A stretch of DNA of 64,000 bases from Dissulfurispira thermophila (GTDB lineage Bacteria; Nitrospirota; Thermodesulfovibrionia; Thermodesulfovibrionales; Dissulfurispiraceae). The stretch lies in contig NZ_AP022873.1 in assembly GCF_014701235.1 (NCBI RefSeq), positions 1,736,001 through 1,800,000 on the forward strand, given 5' to 3'. The notes under the pieces were generated by a model. That model saw only the letters and a list, made by a program, of their open reading frames with translations, did no database searches and had not been told where the DNA came from. Positions 1,298 through 11,290 of this stretch are shown piece by piece (the stretch's first letter is position 1; the number at the start of each line of letters is the position of its first letter). A program made the translations under genes and the position numbers.

Positions 1298-1890
1298 GTC
1301 GCAGTCCCTTCTAAATGAGGTCTTCTTTCCTATCGGTGGGCAGTATAGATACACTGAAAAATATACCAAGTCGCAGTCCCTTCTAAATGAGGTCTTCTTT
1401 CCTATGGATAAAGGAGTAAAGAAGTTCACCCTCAGGTCGCAGTCCCTTCTAAATGAGGTCTTCTTTCCTATAAAGGGAGACTCTTTATCACCTTGACCCC
1501 TCAGGTCGCAGTCCCTTCTAAATGAGGTCTTCTTTCCTATGGTATGAGGTGATAATAGAATAATCGGGGCTCGGGTCGCAGTCCCTTCTAAATGAGGTCT
1601 TCTTTCCTATATTGATGTAAAAGAAATATACGGCGGAGAAACGTCGCAGTCCCTTCTAAATGAGGTCTTCTTTCCTATGAACTTAAGGATATTTAAAAGT
1701 GGTGACATAGTGTCGCAGTCCCTTCTAAATGAGGTCTTCTTTCCTATGAATATAGAGCTGAAGTTATAGCATAACCCCATAAGAGTCGCAATCCCTTCTA
1801 AATGAGGTCTTCTTTCCTATATCTAATAGAATTATATCCTTAATTAGGATGCACGTCGCAGTCCCTTCTAAATGAGGTCTTCTTTCCTAT
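1298..1890 (-). CRISPR. CRISPR array, 9 repeats and 8 spacers, no cas genes in the window
   Basis: Nine 36-bp repeats start at 1298, 1370, 1436, 1505, 1575, 1643, 1712, 1785 and 1855. On the plus strand each begins GTCGCAGTCC and ends CTTCTTTCCTAT. All are identical except the eighth (1785-1820), which has CAATCCC for CAGTCCC. Spacers are 30 to 37 bp and all different. Read on the minus strand the repeat ends in AGGGACTGCGAC, like the AGGGATTGNNAC ends of many type I/III repeats. This suggests minus-strand transcription with the leader to the right. No cas gene lies within the window, so the array is orphan here or depends on a locus elsewhere. Confidence 0.97.
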
Positions 1891-5961: not shown

Positions 5962-6865
5962 TCAACATATCCCCTCCCCCAAAAAAAATAGGGTGGTTTT
6001 ATTTTTCATTGCACAGGCTTTTCTCTCACTCTCTCTTTTCACCTCCTCTCTCTCCATGAGGTTTGGAAATGCAATAGGTCTAAGGCTTGTGATATATGCA
6101 ATAGGGTTTTTTACATAGACTGGGTCTATCTTGAATGTCTCGCAGAGATAGAGAAAGAAGTCAGCCCTTTCAGGATACCTAAAGACAGTGTCCTTAAGCT
6201 GTGTGGCATCAAGATATGAAAACTCTGTTTTTAGTCTCTCAAATATTCTCTCTCTTAGAGAGATGTCTTTATAGATGTCTTTAAAGATGTCTTTTAGCAA
6301 AGACTGTGCCAAGCCAGATGACTCATTGTAATTATTGAGCTTTTCAGGCTCTTTTTGATCTGAATTTGTTGCCCGCTTTTCCACAAAATGTGGTTCGCTT
6401 TTCCACAAAATGTGGTTCGCTTTTACACAAAATGTGGTTCGCTTTTACACAATCTGTAGCCCGCTTTTCCACAATTTGTGGTTCGCTTTTACACAAAATG
6501 TGGTCTGCTTTTACACAATCTGAGGTCTGCTTTTTTAATGGATTGTATCGTCGTTGGTCTATCTGCCATGTGGTGTAATCCTTGTTAAGTTGATATGTGT
6601 AATCTGCAACTTGATGTATAACATTAGCAAGTATTAGTCGCCTTATGGTTTTGTAAATAGTCGATCCATGTTCACTGCTCAATCCCGTTACCTGATGAAA
6701 GTCTTTCACCGTTAGCCTTGCCTCTTTCTTATGCCAGCCATAGCTGTAGCGTATTATCGCCAGCAATATCCTGAATTCTCTGCCTGTAAATTCAGTTGCA
6801 AGCATTGCGTCTAATAGCTCATTTGCAATCCTTGTATATCCATTTTCCACCTGTGGTGAAGCCAT
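5962..6865 (-). pseudogene. Lambda O-like replication initiator, split by a frameshift in internal iterons
   Basis: ATG at 6865 is preceded by AAGGAGG with ideal spacing. The N-terminal part (PQVENGYTRIANELLDAML, EFRILLAIIRYSYGWHKKE, a winged helix) matches the phage lambda replication protein O N-terminal family. Then come seven 22-bp repeats (6375-6528), after which this frame ends at TGA 6344-6346. A second open frame from the repeats to 5962 encodes the missing C-terminal part (SLLKDIFKDIYKDISLRERI...). The two frames differ by +1, and 22 mod 3 is 1. Removing exactly one repeat, or adding two, would therefore join them into a 309-residue protein, close to lambda O (about 300). In lambda the origin iterons also lie inside gene O. 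So this is a phage-type initiator gene with its own origin, currently out of frame. Confidence 0.75.
6375..6528. repeat. Seven tandem 22-bp iterons, probable replication origin
   Basis: Units start at 6375, 6397, 6419, 6441, 6463, 6485 and 6507, each exactly 22 bp, with a partial unit at 6529. The typical unit is GCTTTTCCACAAAATGTGG followed by TTC. Most copies hold a palindrome CCACA-AAA-TGTGG, comparable in design to the dyad-symmetric lambda ori iterons. Copies vary mainly at the C/A after CTTTT and in the palindrome centre. The flank on the 3' side of the gene also carries three AGATGTCTTT repeats (about 6262-6295). Confidence 0.9.
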
Positions 6866-6991
6866 TTTAAAAGCCTCCTTACAGTCTATAACGAGATGTT
6901 CTATAAGCCACAAAAGACACTACAGCAATACAAATACCCTTATGACCGTAATACAAATACTGTGCCTGTTCCTACGCCTGCAAACTAACAA

Positions 6992-7035
6992 ATAAAAAAA
7001 AACAGGCTGGTGGATAATCAACTCCACCAGCCTGT
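6992..7035 (-). terminator. Intrinsic terminator of lipoprotein copy 1
   Basis: On the plus strand an A-run (AATAAAAAAAA) precedes a 13-bp perfect stem, ACAGGCTGGTGGA (7002-7014) and TCCACCAGCCTGT (7023-7035), with an 8-base loop. Read on the minus strand it is a hairpin followed by a U-run, just downstream of the lipoprotein gene. Confidence 0.9.
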
Positions 7036-7051
7036 CTATTGTTATATAACT

Positions 7052-7657
7052 TTATTCAACCTTTTCTACTTCATTTGTTATCTTATCCACAGGCACTCCT
7101 GACAATATCTCTTTAACCTGCCTTGCGAGGATTGCACAGACTAACGGATATTGTTTTGTAGCTGCTCTATTATCATTCCAAAATACTTCAGTGTTGGTTT
7201 TTGCATATAAAGTATATATCTTACCATTAGGAGCAGTAAGGTCGTAATCAATGCGCATATATCCGCGTACCGGCCAAACCCCCTGTGATACTATTTTATT
7301 TAGCCTTATTTTTATAGCCTTATTGTTAGCATCTTTATCCTCAAAGACAGTCTTTGCATTCTTAAATTCCTTTCTTAATGCATTTGCAACGCATAGCTCT
7401 ACATCGCCGTGGTATACAGGGCTATCAAGCGCTGGTGTTCCGAGAGGAGCTTTCGCTTTTTCATCCATCAAAAGTGGTGTAACAATAAACTCAATATCAG
7501 GGTTTTGTGGCTGTTTATCAAGCCCAAGGTCTTTAATACATTCTTCTCTTGTCATGCATTCTGTGCCTGTGATTTTGTGATTAATATGTAGTGTGCCGCA
7601 ACCTGTTAATACTATTACTACAAATCCTAACACTAAAACCCTCAAAAAAGTATTCAT
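7052..7657 (-). CDS. Hypothetical lipoprotein, duplicated (copy 1)
   Basis: 201 residues from ATG 7657, which is preceded by AGGAGGTTAT. The N-terminus is a signal peptide with lipobox VLTGC (Cys19). The mature part has TECMTREECIKDLGL and a later segment with CAILARQVKEIL; no domain is recognised. It differs from the copy at 10487-11092 at 17 of 201 positions by my count (about 92% identity). The similarity extends through the upstream region to about 7735 and through the terminator to about 6985, so the whole transcription unit is duplicated. Likely envelope-anchored in the periplasm; function unknown. Confidence 0.8.
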   Translation of the reverse strand: MNTFLRVLVLGFVVIVLTGCGTLHINHKITGTECMTREECIKDLGLDKQPQNPDIEFIVTPLLMDEKAKAPLGTPALDSPVYHGDVELCVANALRKEFKNAKTVFEDKDANNKAIKIRLNKIVSQGVWPVRGYMRIDYDLTAPNGKIYTLYAKTNTEVFWNDNRAATKQYPLVCAILARQVKEILSGVPVDKITNEVEKVE

Positions 7658-7794
7658 ATAACCTCCTAAAAATGTTTCTTGTTTATATATAAAGAGAAAG
7701 CGTGAAAAAATCAAGCGATTTGAATTTTTTTGATAAATAATTACGCTGTGTTAATATATATATTATTAAGATAAACAATTGGAGTGTGAATAAA

Positions 7795-9848: not shown

Positions 9849-10028
9849 GCCATTTTATACAATGTTTTATTGGAAATGGTCAAGGCTTAGACACATGTCC
9901 CCTCTCACATTAATCTGGCTAAGAATCTCACGGTGTTTTGAATGTATCAAATTATTTTGACCAATTATTCATATAACCCTTGAGGTATAAAGATGGGCAG
10001 ATGTAGCCCCTCTTGTTGTTCATATAAG

Positions 10029-10360
10029 CTATGTTGATGCTATTCTTACATGTTCTGCTGTTATCAGGTTGGTTTTTTTCATAGCTGCTCTTATGAGTGA
10101 GCCTTTCTCAGGAGTCCTCCTGAACCCTGATGTATTGCAAGGACTGCCTCATCTCTTACCCCAGAAAATCTTTGATTTTCTTGTGACCCCGATATCTCGA
10201 GGTGGTGTGGGAGGTATCCTTCCATGTCTTTCAGTCTTAATCCTTCAAGATGGCTTCTGCCGGCTACCCTTGATGCAAGGGGTCTTGAGGTGTGATACTG
10301 GAATTTATCTATAAGCAGATTCTGTCCAGCAAGGAGCATAAGTTCCTCAAGTTTATACAA
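10029..10360 (-). pseudogene. ExeA/TniB-like transposition ATPase, C-terminal fragment with frameshift
   Basis: The first 89 codons (KLEELMLLAGQNLLIDKF, ASRVAGRSHLEGL, HHLEISG, AIHQGSGGLLRKAHS) match the C-terminal half of ExeA-like AAA ATPases that serve as helpers in transposons. The family usually reads SGGLLRKANHLARGALIAA...AEHVRIAAT. Here the frame stops after KAHS and continues in another frame as LIRAAMKKTNLITAEHVRIA to TAG at 10029-10031. The N-terminal Walker domain is absent. An in-frame palindrome (10157-10190) adds residues QENQRFSG between the helix HHLEI and the following segment. Confidence 0.75.
10157..10190. repeat. Coding-region palindrome, copy 1
   Basis: TACCCCAGAAAATC and GATTTTCTTGTGACCCC arms around a 3-base centre. 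It is one of four related palindromes found inside genes; the others are at 44401-44435 (pheT), 59353-59386 (rimP) and 63565-63599 (pilD). Confidence 0.75.
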
Positions 10361-10430
10361 AAGATTGTGAGAATATTAATAGGGTTTTGGGTTAGATAAT
10401 GTGAGAGGGGACACCCCCTGTAAACTAACA

Positions 10431-10470
10431 AAAAAAACAGACTGGTGGATAATCAACTCCACCAGTCTGT
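10431..10470 (-). terminator. Intrinsic terminator of lipoprotein copy 2
   Basis: ACAGACTGGTGGA (10437-10449) pairs perfectly with TCCACCAGTCTGT (10458-10470). Relative to copy 1 the G/C pair in the stem became A/T on both arms, a compensatory change. An A-run precedes it on the plus strand (U-run on the minus strand). Confidence 0.9.
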
Positions 10471-10486
10471 CTATTGCTATACAGTT

Positions 10487-11092
10487 CTATTCAACCTTTT
10501 CTACTTTATTTGTTATCTTATCCACAGGCACTCCTGACAATATCTCCTTAACCTGCCTTGCAAGGATTGCACAGACAAGAGGATATTGTTTTGTAGCTGC
10601 CGTATTAGGACTCCAAAACATTTCAGTATTAGTCTTTGCATATAAAGTATATACCTTACCATCAGGAGCAGTAAGGTCATAATCAATGCGCATATATGAG
10701 TGTACTGGGAGAACACCTTGTGCTACTATCTTTTTTAGCTTTATTTTTATAGCCTTATTGTTAGCGTCTTTATCCTCAAACACAGTCTTTGCATTCTTAA
10801 ATTCCTTTCTTAATGCATTTGCAACACATAACTCTACATCACCATGATACACAGGGCTGTTATACGCTGGTGTTCCGAGAGGAGCTTTCGCTTTTTCATC
10901 CATCAAAAGTGGTGTAACAATAAACTCAATATCAGGGTTTTGTGGCTGTTTATCAAGCCCAATGTCTTTAATGCAGTCTTCCCTTGTCATGCATTCTGTA
11001 CCTGTGATTTTGTGATTAATATGTAGTGTGCCGCAACCTGTTAATACTATTACTACAAATCCTAACACTAAAACCCTCAAAAAAGTATTCAT
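10487..11092 (-). CDS. Hypothetical lipoprotein, duplicated (copy 2)
   Basis: 201 residues with signal peptide and lipobox VLTGC (Cys19), preceded by AGGAGGTTAT. It is the paralogue of the gene at 7052-7657, with about 17 substitutions, several of them near residues 116-160. Both copies have the same promoter region (AAAGAGAAAG..GTGAAAAAATC upstream) and the same terminator. The two units bracket RM pair 1 and the insertion-element remnant. Function unknown; probably a periplasmic lipoprotein. Confidence 0.8.
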   Translation of the reverse strand: MNTFLRVLVLGFVVIVLTGCGTLHINHKITGTECMTREDCIKDIGLDKQPQNPDIEFIVTPLLMDEKAKAPLGTPAYNSPVYHGDVELCVANALRKEFKNAKTVFEDKDANNKAIKIKLKKIVAQGVLPVHSYMRIDYDLTAPDGKVYTLYAKTNTEMFWSPNTAATKQYPLVCAILARQVKEILSGVPVDKITNKVEKVE

Positions 11093-11290
11093 ATAACCTC
11101 CTAAAAATGTTTCTTATTTATATATAAAGAGAAAGTGTGAAAAAATCAAGCGATTCAAGCTGTTGATAAATACAAATGATTATAGTATTACTCTTTTATT
11201 GATTCGGGTGACAATGTTGGAGGTGAAAAAATAAAAAACACAGATATTGCTTGACAAATCCCCTCGCTTACGAGAACATATGTCTGAGAG

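What the first reader, a model, noticed from the sequence alone, without database searches (positions are those of the whole stretch)
5962..6865. Lambda O-like initiator whose internal 22-bp iterons act as a reading-frame switch
Seen: seven exact 22-bp tandem units (6375-6528) lie inside the gene. N- and C-terminal parts are in frames differing by +1. Since 22 mod 3 = 1, six units (or nine) would give one 309-residue protein; the present seven truncate it. Established: lambda O carries its origin iterons inside its own gene, but lambda's are arranged to keep the frame. Inference: iteron copy number changes could turn the initiator on or off, linking origin strength to protein integrity, a phase-variation-like control. 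The simpler view is decay of a prophage remnant.
Basis: partly seen in the sequence, partly recalled or inferred. Interest (0 to 1): 0.8.

Follow-up and report, generated by a model that had tools for sequence, protein, structure and literature searches.

The report
Frame-broken lambda O-like initiator gene
A lone phage-type replication-starter gene carries its own origin repeats inside its coding sequence, and one extra 22-base repeat has knocked the second half of the protein out of frame; this most likely marks a decaying phage leftover, and nothing found shows that it is an on/off switch.

Summary
The observation mostly holds. The minus-strand gene (start 6865) encodes a Phage_rep_O protein whose linker carries seven tandem 22-bp dyad iterons (6380-6533). 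The units are not "exact": only units 6 and 7 are identical; other pairs differ at 1-6 positions. The N-part stops just past the array; the C-part is open in the +1 frame. Two relatives (L231, L027) encode both parts in one frame, so one protein really is split here.

The sequence points to one extra unit as the cause: stop-avoiding G occurs at units 3, 6 and 7, but the N frame needs it only at 3 and 6, and units 6 and 7 are identical.

Intragenic iterons are ordinary in this family: 107 of 133 relatives have at least 3 detectable units, and 103 of those read on 35 codons or more beyond them. Close relatives gain or lose whole units, seen as 24 or 48 bp, in frame. No relative was found switched off by unit number. 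No phage genes flank the gene; the nearest integrase is about 140 kb away.

Best reading: a frame-breaking unit gain in a decaying remnant of a known kind. A reversible switch is possible in principle but unsupported; no strain-level or read-level data were available.

The parts
6344..6865 (-). N-terminal part of the O-like initiator: winged-helix/Phage_rep_O domain plus linker; ends at a TGA 9 codons after the last matched iteron
   Evidence: PF04492 3e-22; PHROG 'DnaD-like helicase loader' 5e-25 and 'replication initiation O-like' 8e-22
6874..6880 (-). Shine-Dalgarno-like AAGGAGG, 8 nt before the ATG
   Evidence: read directly from the sequence
6380..6533 (-). seven 22-bp tandem dyad iterons, consensus AAAGCrrrCyACAnwTTGTGkA
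   Evidence: unique in the genome
6380..6423 (-). units 6 and 7, the only identical pair; one is probably the extra copy that shifts the frame
   Evidence: pattern of stop-avoiding G
6358..6379 (-). decayed partial eighth unit
5962..6408 (-). C-terminal part in the +1 frame; similar to the C-terminal parts of L027 and L231, where it is fused in frame to the N-domain
6261..6300 (-). AAAGACATCTnT repeats after the iterons, the place where relatives carry AAAGA(C) repeats; probable AT-rich unwinding element of the origin
   Evidence: 12-bp tandem repeat; 89 of 107 relatives have at least 2 AAAGAN in 110 nt after the array, against 9 in control stretches

Best explanation
This is a solitary lambda O-type replication initiator gene, left over from a phage or small integrative element, with its origin inside the gene: dyad iterons in the linker, followed by A-rich repeats. 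In the working ancestor six 22-bp iterons encoded a 44-residue linker stretch, the 22-bp unit being read in three frames in turn. The O N-domain bound the iterons and the C-domain recruited the helicase-loading partner (inferred from lambda O). A tandem duplication of one unit, most simply unit 6, made seven units, moved the C-domain out of frame and ended the protein just after the array. The event is probably recent, because both halves remain open. It is most likely a step in the decay of an element that was already incomplete. Shown: the family, the array, the frame offset, the in-frame fusion in relatives, the lack of recognisable phage neighbours. Inferred: six ancestral units, direction and recency of the change, loss of function.
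For: Phage_rep_O and O-like PHROG matches. Array and frames. Units 6 and 7 identical. The unit end TGTGTA followed by A reads TAA in one of three phases; units 3 and 6, which fall in that phase in the N frame, have G instead of T, and so does unit 7, which needs it in the C frame but not in the N frame. One extra unit among units 4-7 therefore explains the whole pattern. Relatives with both domains in one frame: L231, 273 aa, same order, next to an S24-type repressor and RusA, and L027, 290 aa. 107 relatives with at least 3 units, nearly all open beyond them. Gain or loss of whole 24-bp units between relatives 72-98% identical in the N-domain DNA. No phage genes in the neighbourhood: methyltransferases, lipoproteins and an ABC/FtsX system; nearest integrase about 140 kb away; no other PF04492 gene in the genome.
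Against: Both halves are free of stops and the ribosome-binding site is intact, so the gene has not decayed in any other visible way. No strain-level or read-level data were available to show that the 7-unit state is fixed. The C-part matches are modest: 34% over 97 aa to L027 and 38%, E=1e-4, to L231.
Confidence: 0.75

Rival explanations
1. Reversible phase variation: slippage between 6, 7 and 9 units turns the full-length initiator on and off, linking the number of origin sites to protein integrity.
For: 22 mod 3 = 1; units 6 and 7 are identical and unit 5 differs from them by one base, so slippage is plausible; both halves remain open. Unit gain and loss does occur in this family.
Against: No relative was found in an off state caused by unit number; changes between close relatives are 24 or 48 bp and in frame; unit sequences have diverged by up to 6 of 22 positions, unlike hypermutable arrays kept uniform; the gene is alone in the chromosome.
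Confidence: 0.07
2. Assembly or consensus error: the real array has six units and the gene is intact.
For: Two adjacent identical units are where a repeat error would fall; the array (154 bp) is as long as a short read.
Against: The genome is a single contig of 2.37 Mb rated 100% complete; an expansion by one unit is a less common error than a collapse (own knowledge). Reads could not be examined.
Confidence: 0.1
3. The split gene is decoded by recoding (+1 ribosomal frameshift or transcriptional slippage), giving a full-length protein.
For: The shift needed is +1; the N frame ends at a TGA after short A-runs (AAAA, AAAAA).
Against: No known +1 slippery site was recognised by eye, and relatives with many iterons read through in one frame without recoding.
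Confidence: 0.03
4. The chromosomal iterons with a DNA-binding but C-domain-less O act as a decoy against incoming related phages, and are kept for that.
For: Ectopic lambda origin copies block lambda replication in the laboratory (PMC4488673; PMC3349717); a CRISPR array lies 4-5 kb away and methyltransferase genes are close by.
Against: Published effects use plasmids; the locus is not conserved in the other genomes of the genus that were searched.
Confidence: 0.05

Closest known systems
Bacteriophage lambda O protein and ori-lambda (Phage_rep_O, PF04492)
   Same: N-terminal domain of the same Pfam family; dyad iterons with an A/T-rich centre inside the gene's linker, followed by an AT-rich stretch; separate C-terminal part
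   Different: Lambda has four 18-19 bp iterons with short spacers (PMC3349717, PMC5043065) and an intact gene; here there are seven uniform 22-bp units and the gene is split
O genes of Stx phages (six iterons)
   Same: Iteron number differs from lambda by whole units inside the gene
   Different: There the change adds 13 residues in frame (PMC7466680); here the extra unit breaks the frame
O-like genes of environmental phages with 22-bp spacings (L071, L096, L097)
   Same: Several 22-bp spaced dyad iterons in the linker, read in different frames
   Different: Their ORFs continue 78-126 codons past the array
L231 (same order, prophage-like locus) and L027 (Thermosulfurimonas dismutans)
   Same: N-domain and the same type of C-part
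   Different: Both parts in one frame; fewer or shorter repeats in the linker

Membership tests
Lambda O-type initiator (PF04492) | N-terminal Phage_rep_O domain above the curated score | tested here: met
   79.3 bits against a cut-off of 28.7
Lambda O-type initiator (PF04492) | dyad iterons inside the gene | tested here: met
   seven 22-bp units; over 13-14 bp the best dyads pair 10-12 positions in four units and 6-8 in the three weakest
Lambda O-type initiator (PF04492) | AT-rich element next to the iterons | tested here: met
   AAAGAC repeats at the same place as in relatives; 72.5% AT over 40 nt, below the relatives' median of 80%
Lambda O-type initiator (PF04492) | continuous reading frame from N-domain to C-domain | tested here: not met
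   stop just after the array; C-part in the +1 frame. The gene is therefore a broken member
Lambda O-type initiator (PF04492) | binding of the protein to its iterons and recruitment of a helicase loader | not testable with these tools
   needs purified protein
Phase-variable gene with coding repeats | alternative repeat numbers among strains or reads | not testable with these tools
   one genome per species, no reads; no other copy of the array in the genome
Phase-variable gene with coding repeats | off-state relatives caused by repeat number | tested here: not met
   none among 107 relatives with at least 3 units, though none is a close relative of this gene
Prophage | neighbouring phage genes or integrase | tested here: not met
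   no phage family matches in the ten neighbouring proteins scanned; nearest integrase about 140 kb away

The most novel reading that the evidence does not exclude
The array is a reversible switch: single-unit slippage alternates a full-length initiator (6 or 9 units) with a truncated iteron-binding protein (7 units) that may repress or exclude replication.
Probability: 0.07. Interest if true: 0.8.

Novelty: new member of a known kind. Interest (0 to 1): 0.3.

Why it matters
It shows the cost of keeping an origin inside its initiator gene. Iteron numbers change in evolution; where the unit is 24 bp the protein tolerates it, but a 22-bp unit breaks the protein. That predicts a mod-3 constraint on iteron number in 22-bp arrays and free variation in 24-bp arrays, which can be tested in large phage collections. 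If this copy were truly reversible it would be a new way to tie origin strength to initiator activity.

Tried and rejected
A scan of viral contigs with the C-part found no relative. The iteron pattern in viral contigs gave only 17 stretches with a single match each, none an array. No similar chain in the PDB by sequence. L198 looked like a second gene broken in its iterons, but the cause is a one-base deletion, not a unit change. Separate translation of the C-part from an internal start: its frame offers no ATG until near its end and no clear ribosome-binding site (read), so it was set aside. The organism could not be named (one search did not settle it). The 12-bp repeat at 6261-6294 is not a second iteron array; it sits where relatives carry AAAGA repeats.

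Full report
Check of the observation. The gene lies on the minus strand. From an ATG at 6865, with AAGGAGG 8 nt before it, a frame of 173 codons runs to a TGA at 6344-6346. Its first 100 residues are a Phage_rep_O domain (PF04492, E=3e-22), and PHROG families named 'replication initiation O-like' match as well. Inside the linker lies a tandem array of 22-bp units. Self-match at offset 22 is 113 of 132, against a maximum of 62 in 500 shuffles. The units are not exact copies: the consensus is AAAGCrrrCyACAnwTTGTGkA and pairs differ by 0 to 6 positions, units 6 and 7 alone being identical. A decayed eighth unit follows. The array is the only one of its kind in the genome.

The frame. The N frame is open through the whole array and stops 9 codons after the last matched unit. 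The C-part, 6408-5962, is open in the +1 frame. That the two belong together is shown by relatives: L231, from the same order, is a 273-residue open frame with the N-domain and a C-part 38% identical to the window's, beside a RusA gene and an S24-type repressor; L027 from Thermosulfurimonas has the same arrangement in 290 residues.

How it broke. The end of each unit is TGTGTA or TGTGGA. Followed by AAAG, TGTGTA contains TAA in one of three phases. In the N frame this phase falls on units 3 and 6, and both have G there. Units 1, 2, 4 and 5 have T. Unit 7 has G although the N frame does not need it; in the C frame it does. An array of six with one unit added among units 4-7 explains this, and the identity of units 6 and 7 makes a duplication there the simplest event. 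This is inference from one sequence.

What relatives show. I collected 133 distinct O-like genes, nearly all from viral contigs. 107 have at least three detectable linker units. The commonest spacings in the first batch were 24, 22, 23, 19 and 18 bp, so spacings that are not multiples of three are normal: 59 of 70 relatives in that batch have at least one, and 69 of those 70 read at least 30 codons beyond the last unit. In the full set, four relatives read fewer than 35 codons beyond: L056 and L154 (weak, widely spaced units), L063 (30 codons) and L198. L198 is broken inside its array by a one-base deletion relative to L191. Among close pairs that differ in linker length, whole-unit gains and losses are 24 or 48 bp and in frame (for example L077 and L081, L088 and L101, L095 and L099). 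A few pairs involving L190, L211 and L227 show other gap sizes that I did not resolve. The detection is heuristic and the relatives are distant from the window's gene (36-44% identity in the N-domain).

The origin as DNA. After the array, 89 of 107 relatives have at least two AAAGAN words within 110 nt, against 9 in control stretches of the N-domain; the window has four. So iterons and A-rich repeats are both present and only the protein is split, the break falling between the two. Over 13-14 bp the dyads are good in four units and weak in units 1, 2 and 5.

Surroundings. Neighbours are lipoproteins (two 91% identical copies), DNA methyltransferases, an ABC/FtsX system and a CRISPR array. No phage genes were recognised and the nearest integrase is about 140 kb away. 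In related genomes O-like genes stand near an integrase (L145, L147, L149, L150), so a small integrative element that lost its integrase is a likely origin, by inference.

Mechanism and rivals. I favour a decaying remnant whose initiator was split by a unit gain (0.75). Assembly error (0.1), a reversible switch (0.07), a phage decoy (0.05) and recoding (0.03) remain. The decoy idea rests on laboratory work in which extra lambda origins block lambda replication (PMC4488673; PMC3349717). Iteron number is known to vary in frame between lambda and Stx phages (PMC7466680), and the place of ori-lambda inside O is textbook knowledge (PMC5043065). Novelty is low: a broken member of the lambda O kind with a uniform 22-bp array.

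Noticed in passing
window 1298-1890: CRISPR array of nine 36-bp repeats (GTCGCAGTCCCTTCTAAATGAGGTCTTCTTTCCTAT, one with a single change); cas1, cas3 and a Csa2/DevR-type gene lie upstream in L143.
   Followed up: partly
window 6977-7720 and 10417-11155: Two copies, 91% identical, of a lipoprotein gene with its terminator, on either side of a methyltransferase gene.
   Followed up: no
window 9896-10413: A 518-bp segment bounded by perfect 17-bp inverted repeats (TGTCCCCTCTCACATTA), possibly a small non-autonomous mobile element.
   Followed up: no
L145, L147, L149, L150: In related genomes O-like genes sit near tyrosine integrases, three of them with an N-terminal CPTCG motif; this looks like a family of small integrative elements.
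   Followed up: partly
L198:1176-1975: An O-like gene broken inside its iterons by a one-base deletion relative to L191, with the C-part open in another frame.
   Followed up: yes
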